Shown: positions 23,435-45,642 of the stretch, piece by piece
Position numbering within the stretch: the stretch's first letter is position 1
How the letters are laid out: the number at the start of each line of letters is the position of its first letter
Assembly (NCBI RefSeq): GCF_030499575.1
Contig: NZ_JASTLC010000001.1
Coordinates: 1,364,001 to 1,428,000 of the forward strand
Direction: 5' to 3'
DNA from: Streptomyces sp. DG2A-72
Lineage (GTDB): Bacteria > Actinomycetota > Actinomycetes > Streptomycetales > Streptomycetaceae
DNA length: 64,000 bases
Translations under genes and position numbers: made by a program
The notes under the pieces: generated by a model
The model's input: the letters and a program-made list of their open reading frames with translations, nothing else
Told to the model about the DNA's origin: nothing
The model's database searches: none

Positions 23435-24195
23435 TTGCCCTCCTCGATTCCGGTGACACGCTCGTGAACGATGGCGGCGCGAGCGAGCAGAGGGCGCGCA
23501 TAGGCACGCCGGAGATCGTCAGGGGTGTCGAAGCCGGGTTCACCGGCCAGCCAGGCGTCCGGAATCTCTGCGACGACCTCGGCGAGCAGGTCCTCGGTGA
23601 CGCGCGGCGCGAGGTCGGCGGCGGCGCCGGCGACATCGGGCGCGAAGCGGGCCAGCGCGTGGTCCGAGGCGTCGTACGGGCGGGCCGCTGAGGTCTCGGC
23701 GCCGGGCCAGTTGTGGTGCCAGATCATCGTGGCGCCGTGGTCGATGAGCCACAGGTCGCTGTGCCACATCAGCAGGTTGGGGTTGCGCCAGGACCGGTCG
23801 ACGTTGCCCACCAGCGCGTCGAACCAGACGATCCGCCCGGCCTCCTCGGGGGTCACTTCAAAGGCGAGCGGATCAAAACCGAGCGCGCCGGACAGGAAGT
23901 CCATGCCGAGATTGGTGCCGCCGCTGGACTTGAGCAACTCCTGCACCTGCTGGTCGGGTTCGCCGAGCCCGAGGACCGGGTCGAGGTCGAGCGTCACGAG
24001 CCGGGGGACGCGGAAGCCCAGCCGACGGGCGAGTTCGCCGCACACCACCTCGGCGACCAGCGTCTTGCGGCCCTGTCCGGCGCCGGTGAACTTCATGACG
24101 TAGGTCCCGAAGTCGTCGGCCTCGACGAGCCCCGGCAGCGAGCCGCCCTCACGCAGGGGTGTGATGTAGCGGGTCGCGACGACCTCTTTCAACAT
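23431..24195 (-). CDS. HipA-family kinase-like protein
   Basis: A 254-residue protein with the HipA kinase-like core. TYVMKFTGAGQG supplies the lysine of the nucleotide site, LVAEVVCGELARRLG is the helix after it, DALVGNVDRSWRNPNLL corresponds to the catalytic loop (Asp and Asn), and LWLIDHGATM to the metal-binding Asp. It lacks the N-terminal subdomain of classical HipA. The start is unclear: ATG 24195 is almost on top of GGGAGA, while TTG at codon 2 has better spacing. Its first 100 bases are repeated at 45565-45642, marking it as the probable integration site of the element to its right. It is the first gene of the pair with DUF3037. Confidence 0.85.
   Translation of the reverse strand: MLKEVVATRYITPLREGGSLPGLVEADDFGTYVMKFTGAGQGRKTLVAEVVCGELARRLGFRVPRLVTLDLDPVLGLGEPDQQVQELLKSSGGTNLGMDFLSGALGFDPLAFEVTPEEAGRIVWFDALVGNVDRSWRNPNLLMWHSDLWLIDHGATMIWHHNWPGAETSAARPYDASDHALARFAPDVAGAAADLAPRVTEDLLAEVVAEIPDAWLAGEPGFDTPDDLRRAYARPLLARAAIVHERVTGIEEGK
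24091..24190 (-). repeat. Left direct repeat (candidate attL), inside the HipA-like gene
   Basis: The first 30 bases (24091-24120) are identical to 45565-45594. The match then continues with 10- and 12-base gaps through the blocks CAGCGAGCCGCCCTCACGCAG and GCGGGTCGCG up to about codon 3 of the gene. Confidence 0.75.
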
Positions 24196-24216
24196 TCTCC
24201 CAGGCCATCCATCTCT

Positions 24217-24411
24217 TCAGCCTTGCAATCCACGACCGCCGCTGGAGGTGCGCCCCTTGCTTCCGGCCTCCGGCACGAAGTGAGCATAGTAACCGAGGGT
24301 GATCGCGGGCGAGGAATGCCCGAGCCACCGCGCCAAGGTCACGACGGACTCTCCGGCCTCCAGCGCGCGTTGATGACGTCGCGAACTCGCAGCGCCGTCT
24401 CCAACGGTCAA
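24217..24411 (-). pseudogene. Tyrosine recombinase (phage integrase), C-terminal remnant
   Basis: About 50 residues of a tyrosine recombinase catalytic domain: LEAGESVVTLARWLGHSS then PAITLGYYAHFVPEAG and a short tail. The conserved His (LGHSS) and nucleophilic Tyr (TLGYYAH) are both present, but everything upstream of about 24375 is unrelated, so the Arg-containing core is lost and the protein cannot be active. Its position next to the left repeat marks the end of the integrated element. Confidence 0.85.
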
Positions 24412-24546
24412 GCCTCGCCTCCCTCCTGCGGCGCTCCATCAGTGCGTGCGCTCGCAACTGGCTGAGCAGGAGCAGAAGGCCGTACGAATTGACGCATGGA
24501 TGGGTACTCCTCGCAGAGCAATGCACCGAGGCCCTGGCAGCCGTGG

Positions 24547-24891
24547 AACATTGCTACCGATGTCGTCAGTGACGCGGGCGAGGGCGACGAGTGGCCACGG
24601 GTCCACGACAAGCTCTTGCGCTCGCACATCCTGGCCATCGCCTCACCGACCTGGCTGGGACGCCCTTCCTCAGTTGCCCAGCGTGTCCTCGAACGCATGA
24701 ACGCGACCAAGCCCTCGCGGACATCGGATATACCGTTCCCGGCCAGGCGTGGACCTACTGGCGTCTCGGCCCCGGCCCGGGCCCCGAACTACCTGGACGA
24801 CCAGCGCGGCCACGAGTGGGCCCACCGCACCGGCCGTGCCATGGCCGACCACCTCAACGGCGTCGCCCGGGCGCCGGCCGCGGAAGGGTGA
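24547..24891 (+). pseudogene. Flavodoxin/NADPH-dependent FMN reductase family, broken
   Basis: Fragments of a flavodoxin-fold oxidoreductase in three pieces. GEGDEWPRVHDKLL and HILAIASPTWLGRPSSVAQR hold the FMN-phosphate-binding loop in one frame. After VLERMNA the middle of the protein is missing and the match resumes one frame away as ALADIGYTVPGQAWTYW. It then returns to the first frame as NYLDDQRGHEWAHRTGRAMA. The N-terminal nucleotide-binding strand is also absent. Two compensating shifts plus an internal deletion indicate a dead gene. Confidence 0.8.
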
Positions 24892-25064
24892 TCCCATGAC
24901 AGCCGTCTCCTGGGCTTCGGCTCCGCCTTTGCATGACCAGCAGCGAGATCTCTGAACCGGTTCTCCAGCCGTTCAGGCCCTGCGTGGGGCGGTGCCTCCT
25001 GCCCGCCAAGCCACCACGGCCGGACGCCCTCATGGCTGAATACGGCGCAGCCGCAGGTACCGAG

Positions 25065-25826
25065 TCAGCCGGAAGTCGCCGCTGAGTCGCGAAGCTCGTT
25101 CACCGCCGCGGCCAAGTGCGTTTGCAGCGTGTCGGGCAGCGGTTCGCCATGGATGGCCGTCAAAAGCTCCTCGGCTATCTGATGGAGCTTGGTGTTCGTG
25201 TTCTGGGAGGTCGCGACCAGCACGGCCCACGCATCCTCGGCGCTCAGGGAGAACGTGGCCATCAGAATGCCTGTGGCCTGGTCTATGACCGGGCGCGTGC
25301 GCATGGCGCGGCGCAGTTGAGTGACCTCGTTCCGCAGGTCTTCCTGACCCTCGCTCAGAGCATCCTCCATCGGCTGGGTGCCCGCGAACAGCGGCCACGT
25401 GTCCGTCTTGACCAGGAGCCTGTGCACGGCGGGGCTGGACGCCCGCATGGTGAGGAGTTTTCCTTGTCGCTCGGCACGCCGCCGCGCGGCCAGCAGGAGG
25501 TTCAGCGCCGAGCAGTCGCAGAACGTGACACCGCTCAGGTCCAGCTCCACACAGCGTGCGCACCGACTGACGGAGTCCTCCAGCACACTCCGCAGCAGTT
25601 CCTCGCTGTCCATGTCCAACTCACCGCAGACCTTGACGGTCACGTCGCCGTCATGCGCCAGCGTCTGGATCGCCGGTTCGTACGGCATGGCCTCCCCCAG
25701 GTCCACCGGCGTGTCGGCTGCCGCCCCCTCCGCGGCGCCGGAGCGATGCGGGATCCGTAGCTGCTGCATGGCGGCCTCCAGCGAGGACAATGGCTCCAAT
25801 TCAGGCTCCCCCGCCCACCATTGCAC
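25065..25826 (-). CDS. STAS-ANTAR fusion regulator
   Basis: A 253-residue protein with two signalling domains. Residues about 55-160 form a STAS domain (anti-sigma-factor antagonist type) with VKVCGELDMDSEELL and the phosphorylation-site region CVELDLSGVTFCDCSALNLL. Residues about 175-235 form an ANTAR RNA-binding domain: RRAMRTRPVIDQATGILMA and the second helix pair LSAEDAWAVLVATSQNTN. The ANTAR output would act on nascent RNA terminators, while STAS normally binds anti-sigma kinases, so it could link the sigma-B-like switch to antitermination (inference). It is divergent from the small winged-helix gene. It appears intact although surrounded by pseudogenes. Confidence 0.87.
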   Translation of the reverse strand: MQWWAGEPELEPLSSLEAAMQQLRIPHRSGAAEGAAADTPVDLGEAMPYEPAIQTLAHDGDVTVKVCGELDMDSEELLRSVLEDSVSRCARCVELDLSGVTFCDCSALNLLLAARRRAERQGKLLTMRASSPAVHRLLVKTDTWPLFAGTQPMEDALSEGQEDLRNEVTQLRRAMRTRPVIDQATGILMATFSLSAEDAWAVLVATSQNTNTKLHQIAEELLTAIHGEPLPDTLQTHLAAAVNELRDSAATSG

Positions 25827-25858
25827 GTCAAGAGATACCGGAAATTCGTTTCAGGCTT

Positions 25859-25887
25859 TTGAATGCATGAAAACCATGTCCTAGCCT
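25859..25887 (+). promoter_or_regulatory. Promoter TTGAAT-17-TAGCCT, leaderless
   Basis: TTGAAT (25859-25864) and TAGCCT (25882-25887) are separated by exactly 17 bases, a good housekeeping-sigma promoter. The -10 box ends six bases before ATG 25894, so the mRNA should begin at the start codon. Confidence 0.65.
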
Positions 25888-25893
25888 GGGGGC

Positions 25894-26223
25894 ATGGCCC
25901 AAGCCCCTGAGCCGCACACCGGCTGGACGTTCCTCACCAATCACGCACGCGTCCTGGCCGCCATCGCCGGCAACCACGCCACCCGCATCCGCGACATCGC
26001 CGCACGCTGCCAGCTCACCGAAAGGGCTGTGCAGAAGATCATCGCCGACCTGGAGGGCGACGGTTATCTCACCCATACCCGTCAAGGCAGAACCAACGCC
26101 TACCGCATCCAGCCGGACACCGTCCTCCGTCACCCGGCGGACAGCGGACTCACCGTCGCCGACCTGCTCGTCTTCCTCCAGCAGCACGACCACAGCCGCA
26201 GCGGCCAGACGGCCACCTCCTGA
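25894..26223 (+). CDS. Small winged-helix (MarR/ArsR-like) regulator
   Basis: A 109-residue DNA-binding protein that is essentially one winged helix: FLTNHARVLAAIAGNHATRI, then RDIAARCQLTERAVQKIIADL as the helix-turn-helix, and the wing GDGYLTHTRQGRTNAYRIQP. A short C-terminal helix may dimerise. No effector domain is present. Expression looks leaderless from a strong promoter. Being divergent from the STAS-ANTAR gene, it may regulate the shared 67-base intergenic region. Confidence 0.85.
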   Translation: MAQAPEPHTGWTFLTNHARVLAAIAGNHATRIRDIAARCQLTERAVQKIIADLEGDGYLTHTRQGRTNAYRIQPDTVLRHPADSGLTVADLLVFLQQHDHSRSGQTATS

Positions 26224-26564
26224 TCCTGCGACCGGCTGTCCACGCCTCGCATTGGCCTCCGAGGTCCAATGCGGCGCCGCGGGTGCTCTCCGGAGGCGGG
26301 TCCCCATCCGTGGTGGTGGTCTGGTCGGCTACGCGGCACGGCTCGCCGTCCGGCTGGGGGTCAGCAGCCGCAATGGAAGTGCGGGAACACCCCGCCGTCG
26401 CGCATGCGTCCGTGGGCCGCAGACGGGCAGGGCTCGGCACTGTTCCGCGGTGTGGCACCGCGCGTGCGACTGGCTTGCCCGTCAACGACGGCACCAGCCC
26501 GCACGCCGACAGCATGTGTCCGCGTGCGGGCCAACCGGGTACCGGTGAGCGCGGCGTCTCGTGA

Positions 26565-27041
26565 TCAGAGGGGAGCGCCCGGATCTCCAGGCCGGATCCG
26601 TCCACGCCAGGCACCGCTTTCGCCGCCGCGGTCCTCGATGTAGTCCTTGAAGCGGCGCAGATCCCCCTTCACCCGGCGGTCGATGACGCCGAGCATGTCC
26701 CCGCCCTTCTCGACGGCACCGGTGGGTTCGACGTCCATCGTGAGTTCCACCCGGGTGTGCATGTCGTCCAGGCGCTGGAAGCGGACGGATCCCCGCTGCT
26801 GGGAGTCGCCGCCGATGGACCTCCAGGTGATCCTGTCGTCCGGCATCTGGTCGACGATCTCGGTATCGAACTCGCGCCGGACTCCGCCGATCTTGGTGGT
26901 CCAGTGGTTGTGCCGGTCGTCGAGCTGCGTGACCTCCTCGACGCCCTCCATGAAGTTCGGGAAGTCCTCGAACTGCGTCCACTGGTTGTAGGCCGTGTGC
27001 ACGGGGACCTCGACATCCACCGTTTCCTTGACCGTGCTCAT
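26565..27041 (-). CDS. SRPBCC (polyketide cyclase/dehydrase-like) protein
   Basis: A 158-residue START/Bet-v1-fold protein with the pattern of the polyketide cyclase/dehydrase family: VDVEVPVHTAYNQWTQFEDF, then FPNFMEGVEEVTQLDD, the strand IGGVRREFDTEIVDQMPD, and a long C-terminal helix VIDRRVKGDLRRFKDYIEDR. Such proteins bind hydrophobic ligands; stand-alone stress-associated versions are common in streptomycetes. ATG 27041 follows AGGAGG at about five bases. It has no pathway neighbours and is one of the intact genes in the element. Confidence 0.85.
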   Translation of the reverse strand: MSTVKETVDVEVPVHTAYNQWTQFEDFPNFMEGVEEVTQLDDRHNHWTTKIGGVRREFDTEIVDQMPDDRITWRSIGGDSQQRGSVRFQRLDDMHTRVELTMDVEPTGAVEKGGDMLGVIDRRVKGDLRRFKDYIEDRGGESGAWRGRIRPGDPGAPL

Positions 27042-27226
27042 CTCTTCCTCCTTGCCGGTCGTCTGCCGCGCCGTGCCTCTCGGCGCCGTGTGCATCTGTG
27101 CGACACCGAGTACCCATGCCGACGGCGCGAAGACTCCCGACAGTGCGGGCAACACCTGGCGCCGGAGGCGTCCCGTCCGACAGGTCACGCTGATTGCCGA
27201 ACCGGCCGGCCGGGCACCCGGGCGCC

Positions 27227-28278
27227 GTGGCACAGCGACCGCGGATTCTGCTGACCGGGTGGTTCGGCTTCCTGGACGGGGAGGCGACCGCCGGGGACGT
27301 GCCGGCGCTGCACCGGGTGCAGGAACTACTCGTGCGGGCGGGGCTGGACCACGACGTCGGCCGGAGTCCCGGCTTCCGGCCCGCCGGACCGCATCTGGCG
27401 CGGGCTCGCCCCGAGGACTCTCCCACCTGGTGTTCGTCTGCGGTCCCCTGCACGGGCCGCAGATCGAGGAGTTGCATCGGCGGTTCGCACACTGCGTGCG
27501 GATCGCCGTGGGCACCTCCGTTGTCGACGCCGGCAGCCCGGCCGTCACCGGGTTCCACCAGGTACTGGCGCGGGACGCCCCGGGCATCGAGTCCACGGTG
27601 GACCTGGCGGCCCGCGTCCCCTTCCCGACCCCCCGACCCGTCGTCGGGGTGATCCTCACCCACGGCCAGCACGAGTACGGCGCGCGCCGACGGCATGCAC
27701 GGGTGGCGGAAGAGGTGACGGAGTGGTTGTCCGGCCGGGACTGCGCCCGCCTGGAACTGGAAACCCGGCTCGACGTGCACGACTGGCGGCTGAGTGCGAC
27801 CCCTGCCCAGTTGGAGGCCGTGCTTTCGCGGCTCGGCATGGTCGTCACCGACCGACTGCACGGGCTGGTGCTCGCTCTGCGGGCGGGGGTTCCCGCGGTG
27901 GCCGTCGACCCGGTCGAGGGCGGCGCGAAGGTGACGGCGCAGGCGCGCGCCTGCGGCTGGCCCGCGCTGGTGCCCGCCGAGCGGCTCGACGCGTCGGCAC
28001 TGAATCACTGGTGGGACTGGTGCGCGAACTCCGGCCGCGACCTCGCCCAGGAGATCGGTGCCAGGTTCCGGCAGGGTGCCATGTCGGACTGCGCGGACGG
28101 CCTCCTCCAAGCTCTTGCCGACGGTGCACTCCAAGCCCTCCCACCACGCCCGTCCTGTCAGTCGGACGGCCGCCGGGCACTGGGCCGGTGTCGGAGCCGG
28201 CCGCAGCAGCCGCCGCCCCACTGCGCGTTGGTCTTGACCAACGTTTCCCGGAGCTCCGAACGGACACTCGGTCAATAG
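27227..28278 (+). pseudogene. Polysaccharide pyruvyl transferase-like, frameshifted
   Basis: A polysaccharide pyruvyl transferase superfamily protein in two frames. The first part reads RILLTGWFGFLDGEATAGD and continues to ARPEDS. A missing base at about 27418 then moves the sequence to a second frame: LSHLVFVCGPLHGPQIEELH, THGQHEYGARRRH and VVTDRLHGLVLALRAGVP. The TDRLHG motif is the hallmark C-terminal sequence. The start could be GTG 27227 or TTG 27194. A single frameshift is the only lesion I see. It is a different subtype from the intact enzyme at 37996. Confidence 0.8.
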
Positions 28279-28554
28279 GCAACAGATATGAGCCCTACGG
28301 GGCGAAGGAACGAACCGAACCGCGACGGGCCGGATACAGAAAGAAGATGAACCGCCGTGACTGTGGAAGCCAGGAAGACGACGCCCGCCGTCCGTCGACC
28401 CGAAACAGGCTGGGCGAGAGCACGCCGCGTACGTGGTCAGAGCATACGTACCTGCGTGCGCGCGACGATCGACGGCGACGCGGGTCGGCTTCGGCGCGGG
28501 GACGACTGGAACGTCGTGCGGGGCGAGGACTGAGTCACTGTCACATGGGAACGG

Positions 28555-29039
28555 ACCAGTCTCACCCAGGTGGGGCAGCGCGGCGGCGATCGTCACCCCC
28601 TCTTCGTAGAGTTCGATCACCCGTGGGTTGATGCAGGAAGCCCGGCAGACCGCGGGCGTGTTGCCGAGATACAGGGCCACTTCGCGCGCCGCGCGTCCTT
28701 GGCGCAGATGTCCAGGCCGGACACCTCCTGGAGGTACGCGTTGACCTCGTCGCCGCTCACGTCGTGCCAGGCGCGCCGCTCCCAGTAGGCCAGCAGCCGG
28801 TCACCGCCGTTCCTGCGCCGCAGCATCGCCCTCAGACTGCGGCAGGCGGCGGGATCGGTGACGGTATGGACGAGTTCTTGACCGGCCTTGGGGCCGTAAC
28901 CTTCGTTCAGTTCGGCGTACCGGTCGCTGCCGATACGGAAGAACCCGAGGTCGAGCAGGCACACAGCGGTGGCGAGGACTCGTCGGCGAGTCAGCCCCCG
29001 GTCGCTCAAGTGCCCCTCGACAACGGCCCGTACGGCGGG
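28555..29039 (-). pseudogene. DNA topoisomerase IB, broken
   Basis: Remains of a poxvirus-type bacterial topoisomerase IB. From right to left: VVEGHLSDRGLTRRRVLATA, LLDLGFFRIGSDRYAELNEG, a short internal deletion, HTVTDPAACRSLRAMLRRR, and AYWERRAWHDVSGDEVNAYL. A larger deletion with a frame change follows SGLDICAKD, resuming as ALYLGNTPAVCRASCINPRV and IELYEEGVTIAAALPHLGE. The catalytic tyrosine expected in SYINPRV is a cysteine (TGC) here. The N-terminal half is missing. It is clearly non-functional. Confidence 0.85.
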
Positions 29040-29379
29040 TTACCAGGTCCGCTCGGTGCGCACCGTCCCGTCCCGCCCGCGCAGTTCGGCCTCGACCCCG
29101 TCGGCGTCCTGCCGCAGCGAGACCAGCTCCGTTCCCGACCGGATCTCCACGCCCACCGCCTCGGCCAGCTCCCGGAGCACACGCTCGGTCTCGTACTGCG
29201 GAGTCACCAGGACGAAAGGAAACCGGGTGGGCAACCGCGCCAGGTCAAGTTCAGCTGCGCCGAACACCCGGACCCTGTCGATCGTGGCGGCCCCAGCGAC
29301 CAGTTCGTCGGCCGTGCCCCAGCCCGGTGGGGCCGGCGCCCACCACCAGAACGTCCGTGTCCGGGGCCTTGTCGGTCAT
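29040..29379 (-). pseudogene. FAD-dependent monooxygenase fragment
   Basis: It begins properly with GGAG upstream and ATG 29379, followed by DTDVLVVGAGPTGL, the FAD-binding GxGxxG. The frame then fails. A second piece reads LARLPTRFPFVLVTPQYETE and ELVSLRQDADGVEAELRGRD, matching the region after the FAD domain of aromatic hydroxylases (TfdB/PheA type). It ends at a TAA exactly where the topoisomerase remnant begins. Most of the protein is deleted. Confidence 0.8.
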
Positions 29380-29567
29380 CTCCGGTCCTCCGCCCGGTCC
29401 GACGCGCTACGCGGGACGCTGCTGTCACAACGACCTCGTGGCCGCGTGCCCTCACGGCAGGTGCATAAACTCGCGGCGCGGTACGTGCAGCCGGGCGAAG
29501 TGTCGCGAACCGGGGGACGGGGACTCGGCCTACGGGCAGCCGGCCACGACCCTGAAGGAGGGACACC

Positions 29568-30752
29568 ATGCGCGCACTGACCTGGCAGGGCAAACGAGAC
29601 GTGCGGGTGGAAACCGTTCCCGACCCGCGGATCGAGAAGCCCGACGACATCATCGTGAAGGTCACGTCGTCCGGCATTTGCGGCTCCGACCTCCACCTGT
29701 ACGAGCTCTTCGGCCCCTATCTGGACCCGGGTGACATCCTTGGCCATGAGCCGATGGGGGTGGTCGAGGAAGTGGGGCCGGATGTCCAGGCGGTCACAAC
29801 CGGCGACCGCGTCGTCATTCCCTTCAACATTTCCTGTCGCGACTGCTTCATGTGTGACCAGGGACTGCACTCGCAGTGCGAGACGACCCAGGTCCGCGAG
29901 CGCCACAGCGGCGCCGCACTGTTCGGCTACACCAAGCTCTACGGGCAAGTGCCGGGCGGCCAGGCCGAGTTGCTGCGTGTGCCGTTCGGAAACAAGCTGC
30001 CCATCAAGGTGCCCGCGGGGCCGCCCGACGACCGTTACGTCTATCTCTCCGACGTCCTGCCGACTGCCTGGCAGGCGGTCGAGTACGCGGACATTCCCGA
30101 GGCGGGCACCGTCACCGTCCTTGGCCTCGGACCCATCGGAGACATGGCCGCACGGATCGCCCGGCACCGCGGCGCCCGCCTGGTCGTCGGTGTGGACCTC
30201 GTCACCGAGCGTCTTTCGCGGGCGAGCGCCCGCGGCGTCACTTGCTTCGACGCGCGACGCCACGGGAAGGACCTGCCGGAGGCGGTGCGAGACCTCACGG
30301 ACGGGCGCGGGACCGACGCGGTCATTGACGCCGTGGGCATGGAGGCGCATGGCGCGCCGTTCGCCAAGGCGGCGCAGTGGGTCACCGGGCTCCTGCCCGA
30401 CGTGGTGGCCCAGCCGCTCATGGAGCATGCCGGAGTGGACCGGCTGGGGGCCCTGCACACCGGCATCGACCTCGTACGCCGCGGCGGCACGCTCTCCGTC
30501 TCCGGGGTCTACGGCGGTGCTGCCAGCCCGATGCCGCTGCTGACGATGTTCGACAAGCAGATCCAGGTACGGATGGGCCAGGCCAATGTCTGGCGCTGGG
30601 TGGAGGACATCCTGCCGCTTCTCACGGACGACGATCCGCTCGGCGTTGACACATTCAAGACGCACGCGATGCCGCTGGAGGACGCCCCCAAGGCGTACGC
30701 CATGTTCCAGGCCAAGGAAGACGGCATGGTCAAGACCCTTCTCAAGCCCTGA
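29568..30752 (+). CDS. Zinc-dependent alcohol/formaldehyde-type dehydrogenase
   Basis: A 394-residue medium-chain zinc dehydrogenase similar to glutathione-independent formaldehyde dehydrogenases. The catalytic zinc ligands are in SSGICGSDLHLY and GHEPMGVVEEVG; the structural zinc cluster is SCRDCFMCDQGLHSQC; the NAD motif is VTVLGLGPIGDMAARIA; and QANVWRWVEDILPLL is in the C-terminal region. ATG 29568 follows GGAGGGACACC. The sequence appears fully intact. Substrates of this subgroup are poorly known. It may serve aldehyde or alcohol detoxification within the stress-gene content of the element. Confidence 0.9.
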   Translation: MRALTWQGKRDVRVETVPDPRIEKPDDIIVKVTSSGICGSDLHLYELFGPYLDPGDILGHEPMGVVEEVGPDVQAVTTGDRVVIPFNISCRDCFMCDQGLHSQCETTQVRERHSGAALFGYTKLYGQVPGGQAELLRVPFGNKLPIKVPAGPPDDRYVYLSDVLPTAWQAVEYADIPEAGTVTVLGLGPIGDMAARIARHRGARLVVGVDLVTERLSRASARGVTCFDARRHGKDLPEAVRDLTDGRGTDAVIDAVGMEAHGAPFAKAAQWVTGLLPDVVAQPLMEHAGVDRLGALHTGIDLVRRGGTLSVSGVYGGAASPMPLLTMFDKQIQVRMGQANVWRWVEDILPLLTDDDPLGVDTFKTHAMPLEDAPKAYAMFQAKEDGMVKTLLKP

Positions 30753-30870
30753 CGCAACCCTCAGGCTCCGCGCCGATAAAGGAGCTGACAGGCGGCCAGG
30801 TGTGGGCGAGGCCACGCCGCTCACGCGGCCGTAGGTATGTCGGCTGCCGGGTACGACGGATTACCGTCTG

Positions 30871-31440
30871 ATGGATCCCCTGTTCATCGCCAGTACCTCG
30901 GACGGCCCGGCAGTGCTCACAGATCTCTCCCCGCTCATCGCGGCGACCACGCAATGGCTGACGCGTTCCTACCCGGCGTGTGGCGGCGCGCTGGCCGCGG
31001 CCCTGAGCGAGGTGCAGGCCCGGCAGGCCGTAACGGTGGCCGCGTGGCTGCGGTATCCGACGCCGACGGACGTGGCCCTGGTCCAGATGGCCGGCCCCGG
31101 CGGCTCGGCCGGCCTGGACTGGATCACCGGCGCGGACGCGACCGCGCACGACGACGCGGACGACTTCGCCTGGCGCACCTGGGTGGACGAGGTCGTGGCG
31201 AGCTGGGCGGCCTGCCTGCTCACCGACGCCGAACTGGCCCGGCTGGCGGTCGCCGCGATCGCCGACGGCGGCCATGCGACCGGGGTGCCCATCGAATTCC
31301 GGCGCCTGGTGTCGCCCGACGCCCGCGACCGCCAGGCGGCTGCCCTGCTGCGCCACCCCGACCTCCTCGCTCCCGTGGCCGTACTGCACCGCACCGCACT
31401 CCACGAGCACCTCGGCCCGGGCCAGGTGCTCATCGCCTGA
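30871..31440 (+). CDS. Hypothetical protein, 189 residues
   Basis: A 189-residue soluble, mostly helical protein with no domain I recognise. It is rich in Ala and Asp, with an acidic central segment (DATAHDDADDFAWRTWVDE) and a regular pattern of tryptophans. No signal peptide, membrane helix or catalytic motif is visible. Codon bias is good over the full length and no stop interrupts it, so I think it is real. There is no ribosome binding site before ATG 30871. Its neighbours, a dehydrogenase and a dead MFS gene, give no clue. Confidence 0.6.
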   Translation: MDPLFIASTSDGPAVLTDLSPLIAATTQWLTRSYPACGGALAAALSEVQARQAVTVAAWLRYPTPTDVALVQMAGPGGSAGLDWITGADATAHDDADDFAWRTWVDEVVASWAACLLTDAELARLAVAAIADGGHATGVPIEFRRLVSPDARDRQAAALLRHPDLLAPVAVLHRTALHEHLGPGQVLIA

Positions 31441-31576
31441 GCCCCGAGGCACGGCCCTCGACGCGGACCGCACCAGGCCGGACGGCCGAGGCGTCGCCGT
31501 CCTCCGCGCGATCGCCCACGCGGGACTGCCGAACGGCGCCGCCGAGCGTCGCATGATCCCGCGCCGTGCCCCCGCC

Positions 31577-37721: not shown

Positions 37722-37995
37722 AAGCGGAGCCGGGAAACCCGGCAGCGTCGAGCGCAGGACCGCCGGTGCGGGAGCGCCCATACTGTCCCTACGGGCGGAG
37801 CTCTCCCCCGTGCCCGCCGCCGGACCGGCGGCCACTGGAAGTCTCGCGTGAGGTTTCCTCCGAACGTCCCGGGCAACTCGGGCCCGACGCGTCGCCGGCG
37901 TGTTGCCCCACCCAAGACCCGATCTGGCAGTTCCTGGCAGCGAAACAGCCGGACTGCACCGCGGGTCCCCCGCCTCCTTGGAACAGGAGCTCCGG

Positions 37996-39234: not shown

Positions 39235-39240
39235 CGTGCG

Positions 39241-40686
39241 ATGCCGATCCTGGAACCACTCCGACCCGCCCGGACCGTCACCCTTCCCCCGCGTGCGGCC
39301 CGCCACGGGGGCCGCACCGACGTCCTGGTCGTCGGCGGCGGTCCGGCCGGCACCGCCGCGGCCTACGCGGCGGCCGATGCCGGCGCCGACGTCGTCCTCG
39401 TGGAGCGCTACGGCTTCCTCGGCGGCAACGCCACCGTGGCCCTGGTGATGCCGCTGATGTCGTTCCACAACGAGCAGAAACAGGCCGTGTTCAACGAGAG
39501 CGGACACGGCCGCCGGCTGCTGCCCACCGACCACGGCGAGGGCGAGCCGGTGGTGGCCGGATTCCTGTGGCTCCTGCTGGACCGGCTCACCGCACGCGGC
39601 GGCTGCATCCCACCGTCCCCCGACACCGGCTACACGGTGCCGTTCGATCCGGAGCTCTACAAACTCACCCTCCTCGACCTGCTCGACGAGGCGGGTGTGC
39701 GCATGCTGTTCCACTCCTTCGCCTCCGCCGCGCTGCCCCTCGACGACGGCTGGCGGGTGGTCTTCGAGACCAAGTCCGGGCCGGTCGTGATCGACGCAGG
39801 GGTCGTCGTCGACGGGACGGGGGACGGCGACATCGCCGCCGCGTGCGGAGCGCCGTACGAGATCGGCCGTCCGGAGGACGGGCTCGTGCAGCCGATGACG
39901 CTGATGTTCCGTGTCGTCGACTTCCTGCAGCCGCGTTTCGCCGAGTACGTCGGCGAGCACCCCGACCAGTGGCGGGGCGTGCACGGTCTGTGGGACCTCG
40001 TCCAGGAGGCCACCGAAGCGGGGGAACTGCGACTGCCCCGCGAGGACATCCTGTTCTTCGGCACCCCGCATCCCCGCGAGGTCAGCGTCAACAGCACCCG
40101 GGTCACCCGGGCGCTCGGCACCGACGTGTGGGACCTCAGCCGGGCCGAGTACGCCGCCCGCCGCCAGCTGGAACAGATCGACCGCTTCCTGCGCGGGCGC
40201 GTGCCGGGTTTCAAGAAGGCGTACGTGGCACAGAGCGGCGTCCAGATCGGAGTGCGGGAGACGCGCCGCATCCTCGGCGAATACCACCTGACCGGCCACG
40301 ACATCCTCGCGGCGCGTTCCTTCCCCGACGCCGTGGCGCACGGCGCCTACCCCGTCGACATCCACAACCCCCGCGGCAGCGGCACCGTCCTCAAGCGCGT
40401 CCCCCGGGGGAGCTTCTACGACATCCCCCTGCGCTGTCTGCTGCCCCGCGACACCGACCGGCTGCTGGTCGCCGGACGCTGTATCTCCGGCTCGCACGTG
40501 GCGCACTCGTCCTACCGTGTCATGCCCATCTCGATGGCCACCGGTCAGGCGGCCGGTGTCTGCGCCGCGCTGTCCGTCCGTCTCGGCCGCAGTCCCCGCG
40601 AGGTGCCGTGCCACCTCGTCCAGCGCACCCTCAAGCGCCAGGGCGCCCATCTGCGCCTGGAGCCCCGGGAACCCGTACGGCGCTGA
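39241..40686 (+). CDS. FAD-dependent oxidoreductase (FAD_oxidored type)
   Basis: A 481-residue flavoprotein. VLVVGGGPAGTAAAYAAADA is the FAD Rossmann motif, followed by VLVERYGFLGGNATVALVMP, the family GG(N/M)AT signature. VVDGTGDGDIAAACGAPYE is the second FAD region, and RLLVAGRCISGSHVAHSSYR with PISMATGQAAGVCAAL closes the fold. The start ATG 39241 is six bases after the stop of the pyruvyl transferase gene, implying one transcript and coupled translation. Family members oxidise diverse substrates and few are characterised. Coupling to a pyruvyl transferase is unusual. Confidence 0.88.
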   Translation: MPILEPLRPARTVTLPPRAARHGGRTDVLVVGGGPAGTAAAYAAADAGADVVLVERYGFLGGNATVALVMPLMSFHNEQKQAVFNESGHGRRLLPTDHGEGEPVVAGFLWLLLDRLTARGGCIPPSPDTGYTVPFDPELYKLTLLDLLDEAGVRMLFHSFASAALPLDDGWRVVFETKSGPVVIDAGVVVDGTGDGDIAAACGAPYEIGRPEDGLVQPMTLMFRVVDFLQPRFAEYVGEHPDQWRGVHGLWDLVQEATEAGELRLPREDILFFGTPHPREVSVNSTRVTRALGTDVWDLSRAEYAARRQLEQIDRFLRGRVPGFKKAYVAQSGVQIGVRETRRILGEYHLTGHDILAARSFPDAVAHGAYPVDIHNPRGSGTVLKRVPRGSFYDIPLRCLLPRDTDRLLVAGRCISGSHVAHSSYRVMPISMATGQAAGVCAALSVRLGRSPREVPCHLVQRTLKRQGAHLRLEPREPVRR

Positions 40687-40772
40687 CCGCGTCTCGGCGT
40701 CGCCGGTTCGTCGCGGGCTCCTCGGGTACCCGGACAACTGGCAATGAAGGCGACCAGAACGGACGAAAGGCC

Positions 40773-41798
40773 GTGAGGATGCCTCCCCTTACACAGACTC
40801 CCGCGATGGAACCCCGAGTGAGGCGCCGTGCCTCCACACGCACCGCACGTTCGCGCGGCCGGGTCCCCGAACCCGACGAGGAACCGGATCTACTCGGCCA
40901 GTACCTGGCCCGGATCGCGGCGACCCCACTGCTCACCGCGGAGGACGAGGTACGGCTGGCCCAGCGCATCGAGGCCGGAGTGCGGGCCGTCGAGGAACTG
41001 CGGGAGGCCGACGCCGGCGAGCGCGACCCGGCGCCGGAGCGGCGCCGGGAACTCGACGCGGTCGCCCGCGACGGCAAGGCCGCCAAGGACCACATGATCC
41101 GGGCCAACCTCCGGCTCGTGGTGGCGATGGCCAAGCGGCACGCCCACCGGGGTGTGCCCCTGCTCGACGTCATCCAGGAGGGCAACCTGGGGCTGATCCG
41201 GGCGGTGGAGAAGTTCGACCACACCAAGGGCTTCAAGTTCTCCACGTACGCGACCTGGTGGATCCGCCAGGCGATCGAGCGAGGCCTCGCCCAGCACGCC
41301 AGGGCCGTATGGCTGCCGATGCACGTGGTGGGGGAGCTGCGGATGCTCGGCAAGGTCGAACGGCGCCTGCAGCTCGACCTGGGTCGCGAGCCCACCGCCG
41401 AGGAGGTCGCCCGGGACAGCGGCTTCTCCGAGGCCCGGGTCGGCTGGCTGCGCCGCGTCGGGCGGCAGGCGGTCAGCCTGGACACGCCGGTCGACGAAAC
41501 CGGTGAGACGGTGATCGGCGACCTCATCCCCGACACCGAGGTGCTGCAGGCCGCGGACATCGCCGAGTACCAGGCACTCGCGCAGGACCTGAGGAGGGCC
41601 ATCGGCACCCTCGCGCCCCGCGAGGCCATGATCCTCAGTCTCCGCTACGGCCTGCACGACGGAGAGCAGCGCACCCTCGAACAGGTCGCCCGCCACGTGG
41701 GCCTCACACGCGAGCGCGTCCGCCAGCTGGAGAAGCAGTCGCTGGCAAGGCTGCGGGCCCCCGAGACGGGGCAGCGCCTGCTGACGTGGGCGAGCTGA
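40773..41798 (+). CDS. Group-2 sigma factor (HrdD/HrdC-like)
   Basis: A 341-residue sigma-70 factor lacking region 1.1. Region 1.2 reads PDLLGQYLARIAATPLLTAE; region 2 has LRLVVAMAKRHAHRGVPLLD, DVIQEGNLGLIRAVEKFDHT and KGFKFSTYATWWIRQAIERG; region 3 has AVWLPMHVVGELRML; region 4 has LSLRYGLHDGEQRTLEQVAR and VGLTRERVRQLEKQSLARLR. The -10 and -35 binding helices are intact, so it should direct transcription. Starts at GTG 40773, ATG 40779 or ATG 40806 are all possible. It lies about 86 bases after the FAD oxidoreductase and could share its transcript. No anti-sigma gene is adjacent. Confidence 0.92.
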   Translation: MRMPPLTQTPAMEPRVRRRASTRTARSRGRVPEPDEEPDLLGQYLARIAATPLLTAEDEVRLAQRIEAGVRAVEELREADAGERDPAPERRRELDAVARDGKAAKDHMIRANLRLVVAMAKRHAHRGVPLLDVIQEGNLGLIRAVEKFDHTKGFKFSTYATWWIRQAIERGLAQHARAVWLPMHVVGELRMLGKVERRLQLDLGREPTAEEVARDSGFSEARVGWLRRVGRQAVSLDTPVDETGETVIGDLIPDTEVLQAADIAEYQALAQDLRRAIGTLAPREAMILSLRYGLHDGEQRTLEQVARHVGLTRERVRQLEKQSLARLRAPETGQRLLTWAS

Positions 41799-42041
41799 TC
41801 CCCGTACTCGTCTACGGTTTCTGCAGTCGCAGCAGCAACGGCAGGCGGTGCTCTTCCCGTACCCGCGAAAGGTCCTGCCGTTCTCGACCCTGGTCGGCCT
41901 CGGTTGCCGACCCGCCCGTATCCGTCCGCTGGAGCCACGCGTCCTGATGCGCTGCTGGCGCGCGTCCGCGACGGGCTTTCGGTGGGGGCGAGGCGGGAAC
42001 CCGGTCAGCGTTCACGCCCGCCCAGCGGTCAGGAGGCCGTC

Positions 42042-42932
42042 GTGACCGATCCGCAGCACACCCAGCAGAACCCGGCCACCCAGCACCCGCGCCCCGACTT
42101 TCCCTCGCAGGACCAGCCGCACCCCGGATGGACCGGGCCGATGGACCCGCCACCCGACCACGGCGAGGAGAGCTACCAAGGCACCGGCCGGCTGGAAGGC
42201 CGCGAAACCGTCATCACCGGCGGCGACTCCGGCATCGGGCGGGCCGTGGCCCTGGCCTTCGCCCGGGAAGGTGCCGACGTGCTCTTCACCCACCTCGAGG
42301 AGGAGGCGGACGAGGCCCGCGAAACGTCCCGTCTCGTGGAGGAGGCCGGCCGCAAGGCGGTCGCCGTCTCCTGCGACATCCGCGAGGAGGACAACTGCCG
42401 GTCCCTGATCGAGCGTGCGGTCGGGGAGTTCGGGCGCATCGACGTCCTGGTGAACAACGCCGCCTACCAGATGTCCCAGCCCGACGGCATCGAGGCGATC
42501 CCGACCGAGCAGTTCGACCGGGTGATGCGCACCAACCTCTACGGCATGTTCTGGCTGACGAAGTTCGCCCTGCCGCACATTCCCGAGGGCGGCAGCGTCA
42601 TCAACTCCACGTCGGTGCAGGCCTACAAGCCCAGCCCGCACCTGCTGGACTACGCGATGACGAAAGCCGCGATCGTGACCTTCACCCAGGGGCTGGCCCA
42701 GATGCTCGTCGACCGCGGTATCCGCGTCAACGCGGTCGCCCCGGGACCGGTGTGGACGCCTTTGATCCCCGCGACGATGCCCGACACGGTCGAGTTCGGC
42801 AAGCAGAGCCCCCTGGGACGCCCGGCCCAACCCGCCGAACTGGCTCCCGCGTACGTCTACCTCGCCTCTCAGGAGGCCAGCTTCGTCACCGCGGAGATCC
42901 TCAACGCGACAGGCGGGACACCACTTCCGTAG
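42042..42932 (+). CDS. SDR oxidoreductase, stress-type (YghA/GSP39-like)
   Basis: A 296-residue SDR with a distinctive 45-residue N-terminal extension (HPRPDFPSQDQPHPGWTGPM, then PPPDHGEESYQGTGRLEGR), typical of the YghA/general stress protein 39 group. Core motifs are TGGDSGIGRAVALAFAREGA, VNNAAYQMSQ, NSTSVQAYKPSPHLLDYAMT with the catalytic YxxxK, and VAPGPVWTPLIPATMP. GTG 42042 follows AGGAGG at five bases. Family members reduce aldehydes or sugars and are often induced by osmotic or general stress, which fits the other intact genes here. It is probably monocistronic. Confidence 0.92.
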   Translation: MTDPQHTQQNPATQHPRPDFPSQDQPHPGWTGPMDPPPDHGEESYQGTGRLEGRETVITGGDSGIGRAVALAFAREGADVLFTHLEEEADEARETSRLVEEAGRKAVAVSCDIREEDNCRSLIERAVGEFGRIDVLVNNAAYQMSQPDGIEAIPTEQFDRVMRTNLYGMFWLTKFALPHIPEGGSVINSTSVQAYKPSPHLLDYAMTKAAIVTFTQGLAQMLVDRGIRVNAVAPGPVWTPLIPATMPDTVEFGKQSPLGRPAQPAELAPAYVYLASQEASFVTAEILNATGGTPLP

Positions 42933-43159
42933 CCGAGTCCCGCGACGCGGTCGGCAGCATGCCGGACCGCGTCGGACCGGGAACGCGCGCGTTCAGGCAG
43001 ACGACGGGCTCCTCCTACGCCTGACCGAGCACCACGGGATCACGGTGGGTTACGTCTTGCCCGGGCCTCCGCTGCCGAACGCGCCGCTGGAGCCCGGATT
43101 CCACCGTCGGCGTTTCTGACTCTCGCTGCGTGCTGCCGGACGGCTGAAGCGCGTGCGGG

Positions 43160-43360
43160 GTGAGCCGATCGGTCTTGTCCGGTCCGGCCGGCCTGATCGC
43201 CGTCCTCATCGGCGGCCTCCTCGTCGCCGGCGCCCTGGTGTGGGCCGTCCGGCTCGGCATCAAGGTACGGCGCCGCGAACCGGGCCCTCCGGGGCCTGAT
43301 GAGCAGCCCTCGGTGCCGGGCACCGGACCGGTCCGCGAGACCCGGGAGCACCGGGGTCTG
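43160..43360 (+). pseudogene. DUF6479 small membrane protein, truncated
   Basis: GTG 43160 opens SRSVLSGPAGLIAVLIGGLL, a single transmembrane helix, followed by RLGIKVRRREPGPPGPDEQP and RETREHR. This is the N-terminal two thirds of the DUF6479 family, found almost only in streptomycetes. The usual C-terminal tail is missing: at about 43360 the sequence switches to a cytochrome b fragment. The frame stays open beyond but is antisense to the DUF5709 gene and not real coding sequence. Confidence 0.65.
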
Positions 43361-43364
43361 ACTG

Positions 43365-43550
43365 ACGCTCTTCTTCAAGCCGGACATGACCGAGGTGGTC
43401 TACGAGGGTCGGTTCGTACCCATGCACGGCATTCGTATGTCCGCGGCCTTCGACTCCACCCTGCACATCAGCTTCGGCGTACGCGGCGGGCTCCTCGTCC
43501 GGCAGACACACCACTGGGCGGCGCTCGTCTTCGTCGCCGCGATCGGCCTG
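43365..43550 (+). pseudogene. Cytochrome bc complex cytochrome b subunit (QcrB) fragment
   Basis: About 62 residues matching the segment before and within the heme-binding helix of actinobacterial QcrB: TLFFKPDMTEVVYEGRF, HISFGVRGGLLVRQTHHWAA and LVFVAAIGL, including the conserved HHW histidine pair. Both ends are missing. It is fused to the end of the DUF6479 fragment and ends close to the stop of the DUF5709 gene. It is a relic of a second, non-essential qcrB copy. Confidence 0.78.
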
Positions 43551-43585
43551 CTCCGACACCCGTGGGCTGTTCCGCGCCGATTGGT

Positions 43586-44089
43586 TCAAGCGGTCCGCGA
43601 TCCCTCGTCGTCGGACTCGGCCGGGTTGTCCACGACGTGCACCGCGGCCTCTTCGGAGGATGCCGCGCCGCCGGCGATACCAGCATCTTCGGCCACAGTG
43701 TCATCCTGCGTCTCGGCCCCTTCAGCCGCAGCCGTCAACCGTCCCGCACGCCTGTCACCGGCCTCCGCGTCGACAGGCTCGCCTTCCCCGTCAGGCACAT
43801 CTCCGATCTCGTCGCCCGGCGGCGGCTCCGTGTCGGGACGCTCGGCCTGCAGGCGCTCGTCCAGCGAGTCCCGCTCACGCTGCTCCGCGGCCGTGGTACC
43901 GCGGCGCTGCACCGCCAGCGGCTTCTCGGGCGGCGAGTAGCCCTCGTCGATCGCCGGGTCGATACCGCGGTCGTCCAGGGTGTCCTCCGGGTCCATGACC
44001 CCGGCATCGTCCTGGACCTCCGAATCGTCGGGTTGGTACACCTCGTCGCCCATGGATTCGTCGTCGTACTCACGCTGTTCGTCGGGCAT
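43586..44089 (-). CDS. DUF5709 protein
   Basis: A 167-residue highly acidic, probably disordered soluble protein of the DUF5709 family. Hallmarks are YQPDDSEVQDDAGVMDPEDT, LDDRGIDPAIDEGYSPPEKP and the RGTTAAEQRERDSLDERL helix; the C terminus has ASSEEAAVHVV. ATG 44089 follows GAGGAG at six bases. The function is unknown. In streptomycetes such genes occur among osmotic or general stress genes, which is in line with this part of the element. It is divergent from the DUF6480 gene. Confidence 0.87.
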   Translation of the reverse strand: MPDEQREYDDESMGDEVYQPDDSEVQDDAGVMDPEDTLDDRGIDPAIDEGYSPPEKPLAVQRRGTTAAEQRERDSLDERLQAERPDTEPPPGDEIGDVPDGEGEPVDAEAGDRRAGRLTAAAEGAETQDDTVAEDAGIAGGAASSEEAAVHVVDNPAESDDEGSRTA

Positions 44090-44194
44090 CCGGTGCTCCT
44101 CAGGCAGTCGTGCCGGCTCTCTCTCGCGAACTGCTCGCACCGGGTTTCCGCTGGCCGAACGCGTGAAACCCGTCAAAAGCGAAGGGGAGAGCTC

Positions 44195-44461
44195 ATGAAC
44201 GACAAACATGCACACCAAACCGAAGGCGCTGCGGCTGAGACCGATCCCCGACCCGTGGAAGGACTGGCCGTACCTGAGGACACCTCGATGGCTCCCGGTG
44301 CGGCACCTCCCGCCGAATCCGGAGTCTCCGGGCTCGGCGCCCCCGAGCGCGAAGCGCTGAAGAAGGGATGGGCCGTCGCGCCCCTCACACTGATCTGGAT
44401 CGTCGTCGCACTCGTCGTCATCGGCCTGGTGGCGATGGTGGTCGCGCTGGCGACCACATGA
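44195..44461 (+). CDS. DUF6480 small membrane protein
   Basis: An 88-residue protein whose C terminus is one transmembrane helix (LTLIWIVVALVVIGLVAMVV) preceded by LKKGWAVAP; the N-terminal 60 residues are acidic and proline-rich (LAVPEDTSMAPGAAPPAES). This layout and the GW-AP motif fit the DUF6480 family of actinomycete small membrane proteins. The ATG at 44195 follows GGGGAGAG. Function unknown. A strong terminator follows at 44486-44519. Confidence 0.83.
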   Translation: MNDKHAHQTEGAAAETDPRPVEGLAVPEDTSMAPGAAPPAESGVSGLGAPEREALKKGWAVAPLTLIWIVVALVVIGLVAMVVALATT

Positions 44462-44485
44462 CCACGAATACGGAGCGGGACGGGG

Positions 44486-44519
44486 AAGCCCCGGCCCGTG
44501 AGTTCACTGGCCGGGGCTT
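44486..44519. terminator. Bidirectional hairpin terminator
   Basis: AAGCCCCGGCC (44486-44496) pairs perfectly with GGCCGGGGCTT (44509-44519). It lies between the convergent DUF6480 and cold-shock genes and can serve both. Confidence 0.85.
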
Positions 44520-44531
44520 CTTCGTGCGTCG

Positions 44532-44735
44532 TCAGGCGGGAGTGATGTTCTCCGCCTGCGGGCCCTTTTGGCCCTGCGCGATGTCGAAGCTCACCTTCTG
44601 GCCTTCCTGGAGCTCACGGAAGCCCGAGCTGGCGATGTTCGAGTAGTGGGCGAAGACGTCGGGGCCGCCGCCGTCCTGCTCGATGAAGCCGAAGCCCTTC
44701 TTGGAGTTGAACCACTTCACAGTGCCTGTAGCCAT
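44532..44735 (-). CDS. Cold-shock domain protein
   Basis: A 67-residue single-domain CSP that binds single-stranded RNA or DNA. Both nucleic-acid motifs are perfect: KGFGFIEQ (RNP1) and VFAHYSNI (RNP2), within [20 protein letters not shown]. The C terminus [10 protein letters not shown] is typical. ATG 44735 follows AAGGAG. It has a leader of about 90 bases between the upstream terminator and the start codon, long enough for the structured 5' UTR often seen for csp mRNAs. Streptomycetes carry several paralogs; this one is on the element. Confidence 0.95.
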
Positions 44736-44826
44736 CTGCCTGTCTCCTTCGACGGGACTCGTATCGGACCCCGCACCGTGCGGGATCCGGAGGTGATCGC
44801 CCTGGTCCGGAGAGGCGTTGAACAGC

Positions 44827-44855
44827 AAAAACGCCCGTGACTGCGATCACGGGCG
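44827..44855 (-). terminator. Intrinsic terminator upstream of the csp gene
   Basis: On the minus strand the stem CGCCCGTGA/TCACGGGCG is followed by TTTTT (A tract at 44827-44831 on the plus strand). It closes transcription from the GAF-ANTAR remnant side before the cold-shock gene. A real U tract is unusual for this genus. Confidence 0.85.
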
Positions 44856-44936
44856 AACGGGACTTCGGAACCACGACTGCTGATCATGACGCTACACCGG
44901 CTGGCGGCGCTCGGCCACTGAAACGCAGAGTTGGTC

Positions 44937-45397
44937 TCATAAGCTGTGGGCGGCGGCAGTAGCTGTATCACCTTCGCTCCGCGCGGAGCAGCTCGCATAG
45001 GCGCTGAGCAACCGGGGCGCCTCACCGATCGTCGACCCCGCGTACTGCGCGACCATGCCCTTGGCGATCTCCAGCGTGCCCTTCGCCGCGATCACGCTCT
45101 GCACGCGGGTGATCACATCGTCGACCTGCGCCGGCTCCGTGGACCAGTGCATCAGGCCCAGCGCGGCGGAGTCCGCGAGGGCCTGTGCCAGATGTACGTC
45201 GTCCTCCACGAGATGCCCCGAGCGCTGACGCATCAGCGTGAGGGGCTCCCAGCGGTTGCTCGCGCAAACGCATCTGGATCGCCTGCAGGGACTCGTACCC
45301 GTTCTCGATCACCGCCGTGACCAGTTTCGGCCAAGCGGACACTTAGGCCGCGCAGTTCGACGACGAAAGCCTGCGCCAGTTGGCGCTCGCGGTTCAT
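44937..45397 (-). pseudogene. GAF-ANTAR regulator, broken
   Basis: ATG 45397 with GGAGGAG upstream begins NRERQLAQAFVVELRG, the normal start of a GAF-ANTAR protein. The body of the GAF domain is then deleted. The sequence resumes as VTAVIENGYESLQAIQMRLR, shifts frame after EQPLGA, and continues as DDVHLAQALADSAALGLMHW and the ANTAR part VQSVIAAKGTLEIAKGMVAQ, AGSTIGEAPRLLSAYA. The ANTAR half is nearly complete, but a functional protein is not possible without the deleted and frameshifted parts. Confidence 0.82.
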
Positions 45398-45564
45398 GTT
45401 CTCCTCCCCGGCGCTGTGGTCACGGTCATCGGCACATGTGCCGTCCGTTCAGTCATCGCGGAGGTCCATGCTGCGGTCGATGATCGCCGGGGCCACCCCA
45501 CCCAACGGTTTCACGCGATCTTGGCACAGGCAAACAGCCATGGTCAGCGCCGCTCCGCGGACCC

Positions 45565-45642
45565 CTTCATGACGTAGGTCCCGAAGTCGTCGGCCCCGGC
45601 AGCGAGCCGCCCTCACGCAGGCGGGTCGCGGTGACTTCCTTG
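45565..45642 (-). repeat. Right direct repeat (candidate attR), degraded HipA 5' end
   Basis: Bases 45565-45594 are identical to 24091-24120. The copy then lacks 10 bases, matches CCCGGCAGCGAGCCGCCCTC, lacks 12 bases, and matches GCGGGTCGCG before fading near codon 3. Read on the minus strand it gives KEVTATR and LREGGSLPG, so it is a decayed copy of the HipA-like N terminus. Confidence 0.75.

What the first reader, a model, noticed from the sequence alone, without database searches (positions are those of the whole stretch)
24091..45642. A decayed integrated element flanked by two copies of a HipA-like gene's 5' end
A 30-base block is identical at 24091-24120 and 45565-45594, and the match continues with gaps over about 100 bases of the HipA-like gene's start. 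An integrase C-terminal remnant lies 22 bases from the left copy. The right copy is worn down by 10- and 12-base deletions, as expected when it is free of selection. Integration into the 5' end of a protein gene, not a tRNA, is unusual.
Basis: partly seen in the sequence, partly recalled or inferred. Interest (0 to 1): 0.72.

Follow-up and report, generated by a model that had tools for sequence, protein, structure and literature searches.

The report
Decayed island in a HipA-like gene
A worn-out mobile island in a Streptomyces-type chromosome sits in the front end of a HipA-like kinase gene, of a kind linked elsewhere to phage defence, and has replaced that gene's start with its own copy; many related bacteria carry such islands at the same spot.

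Summary
The repeats are the two attachment-site scars of a genomic island about 21.4 kb long, inserted at codons 32-35 of a HipA_2 kinase gene by a tyrosine integrase that is now a remnant.

Relatives show empty sites (hipA beside the Rieske gene, one copy), filled sites with the integrase about 131 bp upstream of hipA, a tandem array, and one pair of scars 195 kb apart with conjugation genes between. The window's left 5' end is of the island type. The worn right copy is the host's displaced original. Islands of this family carry regularly spaced CTCCCCA repeats on both arms (21 of 25 attL, 23 of 30 attR, 0 of 6 empty sites), as expected for integrase arm sites; the window has lost them.

hipA and its DUF3037 neighbour match PADLOC PDC-M66. 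Related pairs defend against phage in E. coli. Islands often remove a promoter-like motif from hipA, so they may re-wire a defence-type kinase; this is untested.

The kind is known (dusA, prfC). I found no description of this target or integrase clade. Part of the cargo lies elsewhere in the closest relative, so the 21 kb may be composite.

The parts
23431..24195 (-). HipA_2 kinase gene (254 aa), the target; intact, a chimera of host body (K35 onward) and island-supplied codons 1-34
   Evidence: Open frame; PF20613; PADLOC PDC-M66A; codon type of its 5' end
22985..23434 (-). DUF3037 partner gene, overlapping hipA
   Evidence: PF11236; PADLOC PDC-M66B, weak, 24.4 bits
24091..24102 (-). attL core, codons Y32-V33-M34-K35 (TACGTCATGAAG read on the minus strand)
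   Evidence: Sequence; shared junction across relatives
24094..24195 (-). Island-supplied codons 1-34 of hipA
   Evidence: 2.8 of 23 mismatches to the island set against 5.2 to the native set
24196..24232 (-). Island-type leader of hipA
   Evidence: Score 33 of a possible 37 against the island leader; best of 200 random sequences scored 10
24235..24366 (-). Tyrosine-integrase C-terminal remnant; a frameshifted further piece lies just upstream (about 24368-24407)
   Evidence: 86% identity over residues 370-413; three-frame reading
24420..45540 (.). Island interior: STAS-ANTAR protein, SRPBCC protein, alcohol dehydrogenase, hemerythrin, polysaccharide-type genes (several truncated), FAD oxidoreductase, sigma factor, SDR, cold-shock-like protein (by sequence)
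   Evidence: Gene calls; Pfam and NCBIfam; partly composite by comparison with G022
45542..45551 (-). Trace of the island's right-end arm (GGTCAGCGCC on +), conserved beside attR in relatives
   Evidence: Sequence compared with the attR alignments
45565..45641 (-). attR: the host's original hipA 5' end, eroded (10- and 12-base deletions, start codon lost)
   Evidence: native-type codons, 2.5 of 23 mismatches to native against 6.4 to island set
45801..46268 (+). Rieske-type gene, hipA's neighbour at empty sites

Best explanation
A genomic island was inserted by its own tyrosine integrase at codons 32-35 of a conserved HipA_2 kinase gene. The island's attP carries a copy of the gene's 5' end (leader plus codons 1-34), with the integrase gene ending about 130 bp upstream of it and pairs of CTCCCCA repeats on both arms. 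Recombination therefore leaves an intact chimeric hipA at attL and pushes the host's own 5' end to attR beside the Rieske gene. Shown by comparison: the site, the geometry, the origin of each copy, recurrence, a tandem array and decay. Inferred: that this integrase catalyses the insertion, that the CTCCCCA repeats are its arm sites, and that the chimeric kinase works. In the window the integrase is a remnant, the arm repeats are gone and attR is eroded, so the island should be immobile.
For: Empty sites. One junction at all resolved scars. attR signature in 41 of 392 genomes against 3 of 392 for the off-by-one control. Island-type leader and integrase go together: 10 of 11 loci with such a leader have an integrase match upstream, 0 of 19 others. 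Gap from the last matched integrase residue to the hipA or hipA2 start 127-138 bp in 14 of 34 integrase loci, exactly 131 in 8. CTCCCCA repeats at fixed places in 21 of 25 attL and 23 of 30 attR loci and 0 of 6 empty sites. Codon type of each copy in the window. Tandem array in G308.
Against: The window itself keeps only a short integrase remnant, no arm repeats, no recognisable leader on the right copy and no recognised transfer gene in the proteins scanned. Of 30 attR-signature loci read, 9 carry no recognisable hipA start and 1 only part of it, so the signature is not confined to hipA. Part of the cargo lies elsewhere in G022. Several attL leaders (G004, G308, G361) are not of the main island type. 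No excision or integration was observed.
Confidence: 0.92

Rival explanations
1. The scars are real, but the interior is composite: an island integrated, decayed by deletion, and other chromosomal or mobile DNA was gained between the scars, by accretion or rearrangement.
For: In G022, whose flanking genes are among the closest to the window's, five blocks homologous to window 28242-43179 lie in the same order on contig C160:13.9-19.4 kb, not at hipA. Tandem arrays exist in relatives (G308). Several interior genes are truncated.
Against: No internal attR scar is seen in the window, though it could have decayed. The cargo may have moved in G022 instead.
Confidence: 0.4
2. Docking re-wires the host: the island swaps the promoter region and N-terminal segment of a phage-defence-type kinase and so changes when it is made. 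This goes further than the best explanation and does not contradict it.
For: TANNNT about 12 bp before the start codon in 6 of 6 empty sites but 5 of 21 attL loci chosen by arm repeats. hipA lies on the same strand close downstream of int. The pair matches PDC-M66. Related pairs are defence systems in which DUF3037 loss is toxic (PMC12548924) and kinase activity is needed (PMC13092281), passages read.
Against: No expression data. Five attL loci keep the motif. An earlier count, 16 of 16 native against 1 of 24 island leaders, is partly circular, because the island class was set by a motif containing TGGCCT; leaders of neither class had it in 16 of 32. The gene is near-universal (390 of 392), which may mean a household role. 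The PDC-M66B match is weak.
Confidence: 0.2
3. The right copy is a chance repeat or the relic of an old hipA paralog, with no integration.
For: Other repeats of similar length exist in the window, and a HipA_2 paralog exists in the genome.
Against: The right copy is of the local native codon type and lies at the native place beside the Rieske gene; the same junction recurs in many genomes.
Confidence: 0.02

Closest known systems
dusA-associated genomic islands and prophages (PMC4482086; passages and section 18 read)
   Same: Integrase gene beside the 5' end of a conserved protein gene; the island supplies a new 5' end and the original is displaced to the far scar; semi-conserved direct repeats.
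   Different: Other target gene and, as the paper describes it, another gene arrangement (5' ends of integrase and target adjoin; here the integrase is upstream on the same strand). Homology of the two integrases was not tested.
SXT/R391 ICEs in the 5' end of prfC (PMC2791158; passages)
   Same: Tyrosine integrase, 5' end of a conserved protein gene.
   Different: Other target and hosts; near-identical Int defines that family and was not compared here.
PAISt of Streptomyces turgidiscabies (PMC4057263; abstract, outline and passages)
   Same: Large Streptomyces island with a tyrosine recombinase, target-gene duplication at the scars, arrays, erosion of integrase and scars; core TTCATGAA is close to CTTCATGAC here.
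   Different: 3' end of bacA, not the 5' end of hipA. IntSt is described there as not recognised by Pfam; the integrase here matches PF00589. No sequence of it was compared.
Actinomycete ICEs (AICEs) (PMC3218068 passages; PMC9513070 passages and section 13)
   Same: Integrase-borne elements in Streptomyces; accretion and decay at shared sites.
   Different: Mostly tRNA genes for tyrosine-integrase AICEs in PMC3218068; neither main text mentions hipA.
HipAD / DS-6 / PDC-M66 phage defence (PMC13092281 and PMC12548924; passages)
   Same: HipA-like kinase next to a DUF3037 protein.
   Different: Here the pair is a near-universal chromosomal locus serving as an attachment site; its defence activity is unknown.

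Membership tests
Genomic island that replaces the 5' end of a protein gene (dusA/prfC kind) | Two scars, one an intact gene start, the other the displaced original | tested here: met
Genomic island that replaces the 5' end of a protein gene (dusA/prfC kind) | Empty site in relatives | tested here: met
Genomic island that replaces the 5' end of a protein gene (dusA/prfC kind) | Tyrosine integrase gene at the target end | tested here: met
   Remnant in the window; open or longer copies in relatives
Genomic island that replaces the 5' end of a protein gene (dusA/prfC kind) | Excision and integration | not testable with these tools
   Needs PCR or mating
dusA-associated integrase family | Homology to the dusA integrases; dusA as target | tested here: not met
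   Target is HipA_2; integrase homology itself was not tested
SXT/R391 ICE | prfC target | tested here: not met
   Target is HipA_2
AICE | TraB/FtsK-type transfer and replication genes | tested here: not met
   None among the 19 interior proteins scanned with Pfam and/or NCBIfam; about 22 genes of 60 aa or more were called in the interior
ICE with type IV secretion | Relaxase and type IV secretion genes in the element | tested here: not met
   Not in the window's scanned proteins. In the 195-kb G291 stretch: relaxase, SCO6880 and SCO6881 above cut-off, VirB4-like below cut-off
HipAD/PDC-M66 defence pair | HipA-like kinase plus DUF3037 protein side by side | tested here: met
   (second match weak)
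HipAD/PDC-M66 defence pair | Kinase-dependent phage defence; toxicity without DUF3037 | not testable with these tools
   Shown for other pairs only (PMC12548924, PMC13092281, passages)

The most novel reading that the evidence does not exclude
A genus-wide family of islands, some with conjugation genes, uses a host HipA-DUF3037 phage-defence-type kinase gene as its docking site. On docking, each island swaps the kinase's promoter region and N-terminal segment, up to the invariant lysine 35, for its own version. Control of the kinase thus passes to the island, is reset at each excision or new arrival, and is inherited by the host after the island decays.
Probability: 0.2. Interest if true: 0.82.

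Novelty: new member of a known kind. Interest (0 to 1): 0.57.

Why it matters
It defines a recurrent, well-bounded integration site in Streptomyces-type genomes. A 37-base scar signature makes hidden and decayed islands easy to map, and relatives offer open integrases and an attB/attP pair to test as a new docking site. It also raises a testable question: do islands that use a defence-type kinase gene as their address change how the host defends itself?

Tried and rejected
Paralog relic or chance repeat: rejected by place, codon type and shared junction. tRNA-borne island: no tRNA. Composition as a sign of foreign DNA: uninformative, G+C 0.706 inside, 0.706 and 0.709 outside. Phage or plasmid origin of the integrase: matches in 991 phage and 70 plasmid records, all under 60% identity. 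Shared cargo: besides the integrase, 3 protein families recur in 3 or more genomes among 413 proteins of the regions compared, so cargo does not define the family. K35 as the ATP-binding lysine therefore rests on its invariance in 50 of 50 aligned proteins and on recalled kinase motifs. The sequence search of solved structures gave only a weak hit, E 0.3. The first attR pattern had my spacer one base too long and is kept as a control. Rows left out: the codon comparison used 28 of 56 sequences, sorted by me by leader type; the first arm-repeat count used 13 attL and 27 attR loci and was redone on all 25 and 30.
Full report
WHAT IS THERE. The window is G000:C1:1364001-1428000 of a 10.58-Mb genome. 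Close homologues of its hipA carry Streptomyces names. The copies align at 24091-24189 and 45565-45641, with 10- and 12-base gaps in the right copy; the exact block is 31 bases. The left copy is inside the open gene 23431-24195 (minus), a HipA_2 kinase (PF20613), followed by an overlapping DUF3037 gene (PF11236). They match PADLOC PDC-M66A at E 8.2e-18 and PDC-M66B at 4.5e-6. Just upstream of hipA lies a tyrosine-integrase remnant.

EMPTY SITES. In G007, G001, G020, G016 and G013, hipA is next to the divergent Rieske gene. In G003 the Rieske gene was not found and hipA adjoins the next gene. All six show one hipA start in the 20 kb read. The gene's first 45 residues match in 390 of 392 genus genomes.

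FILLED SITES. Of 47 genomes that I chose because they gave extra or suspicious matches, 30 carry a further, truncated hipA start ending at or before codon 42 at E below 1e-6 (my count). Laid side by side they show one junction: the gene reads TACGTCATGAAGTTCACCGG, the fragment TACGTCATGAAGTTGTCTACC, then ten bases and CTGACCTGC, with variation. A pattern for this attR junction hits 47 places in 41 of 392 genomes; with the spacer one base longer it hits 3 of 392. Of the 47 places I read 30. Of these, 20 carry a clear hipA start (25 or more of 36 residues), 1 a partial one, and 9 none that I could recognise.

WHO SUPPLIED WHICH COPY. Two main leader types occur: native (CCAGTAACCTGGGGCG before the start) and island (TGGATTGCAAGGCTGAAGAGATGGGTGGCCTGGGAAA). 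Of 30 fragments, 7 have a clear native leader and all 7 lie beside Rieske-side genes. Four have a clear island leader and none has those genes in the 3-8 kb held; one of the four (G152) is nearer the paralog, so it tells nothing here. In all, 14 of 30 have Rieske-side genes within 9 kb. The window's right copy has lost its leader and is assigned by its codons: 2.5 of 23 mismatches to the native set (13 sequences), 6.4 to the island set (15). Its left copy has 5.2 and 2.8. So the right copy is the host's original start, displaced and decaying. In the 30 loci nearest to the window's gene, an integrase match lies upstream of hipA in 10 of 11 with an island-type leader and 0 of 19 others.

ANATOMY. 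Among 34 integrase loci, the gap from the last matched integrase residue to a HipA_2 start is 127-138 bp in 14 (131 in 8), 200 in G361, and 40-61 in three worn loci (window, G009, G022). Two (G378, G379) have 107-111 bp to a gamma-glutamyltransferase gene. Thirteen, with 66-69% identical integrases, have neither gene in the sequence held. In G126 the 1.5 kb held shows none, but a hipA paralog lies about 2.2 kb away on its contig. CTCCCCA repeats occur upstream of hipA in 21 of 25 attL loci (104 and 93 bp before the start in 13) and beyond the core in 23 of 30 attR loci (typically at 105, 116, 135 and 146 bp), but in 0 of 6 empty sites; the background is 0.066 per 300 bp. This looks like integrase arm sites (inference). 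The window has none. G308 holds two islands in tandem, with one island-made and one native fragment. In G291 the scars are about 195 kb apart. Between them lie a relaxase (PF03432), SCO6880 and SCO6881 family proteins above cut-off, a VirB4-like ATPase below cut-off and a type I-E Cas7 (at most nine proteins picked and scanned per library). Its integrase frame has one stop.

BEYOND THIS LOCUS. The integrase clade also uses the HipA_2 paralog (G299, G374, G177, G132, G175). The window's own genome has an integrase remnant there too (G000:C1:8595294-8595404, paralog start 8595510). In G378 an attR about 59 kb from the gamma-glutamyltransferase gene carries that gene's start. So related integrases address different gene starts in the same way.

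CARGO. The interior has stress- and surface-type genes, several truncated, and no recognised transfer gene among those scanned. The FAD oxidoreductase occurs in 7 of 61 genomes, the window's own included. In G022 five homologous blocks lie in the same order on contig C160, not at hipA; G022's hipA site has an insert of about 4 kb instead. The 21 kb may be composite or rearranged.

MECHANISM AND FUNCTION. Best reading: integrase-mediated insertion that replaces the target's 5' end. The core covers Y32-V33-M34-K35; K35 is invariant in 50 of 50 aligned kinases of two paralog groups. A conserved catalytic codon would make a dependable address (inference; the structure model failed). TANNNT lies about 12 bp before the start in 6 of 6 empty sites and 5 of 21 attL loci picked by arm repeats. 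A first count by leader type (16 of 16 native, 1 of 24 island, 16 of 32 others) was partly circular. Docking may thus change hipA expression; that is not shown. HipA-DUF3037 pairs elsewhere act as toxin-antitoxin-like phage defence (PMC12548924, PMC13092281, passages).

WHAT IS KNOWN. dusA islands replace the 5' end of their target and displace the original (PMC4482086, passages and section 18). SXT ICEs use the 5' end of prfC (PMC2791158, passages). A review of mobilizable elements says 5'-end sites are the rarer case, and its hipA mentions that I saw concern cargo (PMC5704250, passages). Three searches for a hipA attachment site in Streptomyces (open-licence papers only, capped lists, no supplements) showed me no such description. 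The kind is known; target and integrase clade seem undescribed there.

VERDICT. Observation confirmed; interpretation supported, with the origin of the two copies settled and the single-import claim left open.

Noticed in passing
L132 (G378:C1:6538000-6544000), L123 (G378:C1:6480632-6483668), L134 (G379): Related integrases (about 73% and 69% identical) sit 107-111 bp before a gamma-glutamyltransferase gene; in G378 an attR about 59 kb away carries that gene's start.
   Followed up: partly
G000:C1:8595294-8595404 and 8576349-8576652 (L182, L183): The window's own genome has integrase remnants beside, and about 19 kb from, its HipA_2 paralog: probable further decayed insertions.
   Followed up: partly
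G000:C1:115621-115657 (L148); L102 (G215): The attR arm signature follows truncated genes that are not hipA: an SDR gene in the window's own genome and an MFS-like transporter in G215. Possibly secondary integration sites.
   Followed up: partly
L135-L147 (13 loci): Thirteen integrases 66-69% identical to the hipA-type one have neither hipA nor the gamma-glutamyltransferase gene downstream in the sequence held; many lie near a CorA-like gene (by sequence), so their site is another, unidentified one.
   Followed up: no
L047 (G022:C87:44000-63999): In G022 many flanking genes are 91-99% identical to the window's, but hipA is 86% and DUF3037 77%; two other genes there are also near 70%. Possibly local gene replacement.
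   Followed up: no
window 3699, 49467, 52296: A G+C-rich intergenic repeat shared within the window belongs to a family with tens of copies in the genome.
   Followed up: no
window 36278-36427 and 36954-37103: A 150-base direct repeat, 75% identical, within the polysaccharide-type debris of the island interior.
   Followed up: no
L159:964-2088 (G291): The 195-kb G291 stretch between hipA scars holds a type I-E CRISPR Cas7 gene.
   Followed up: no
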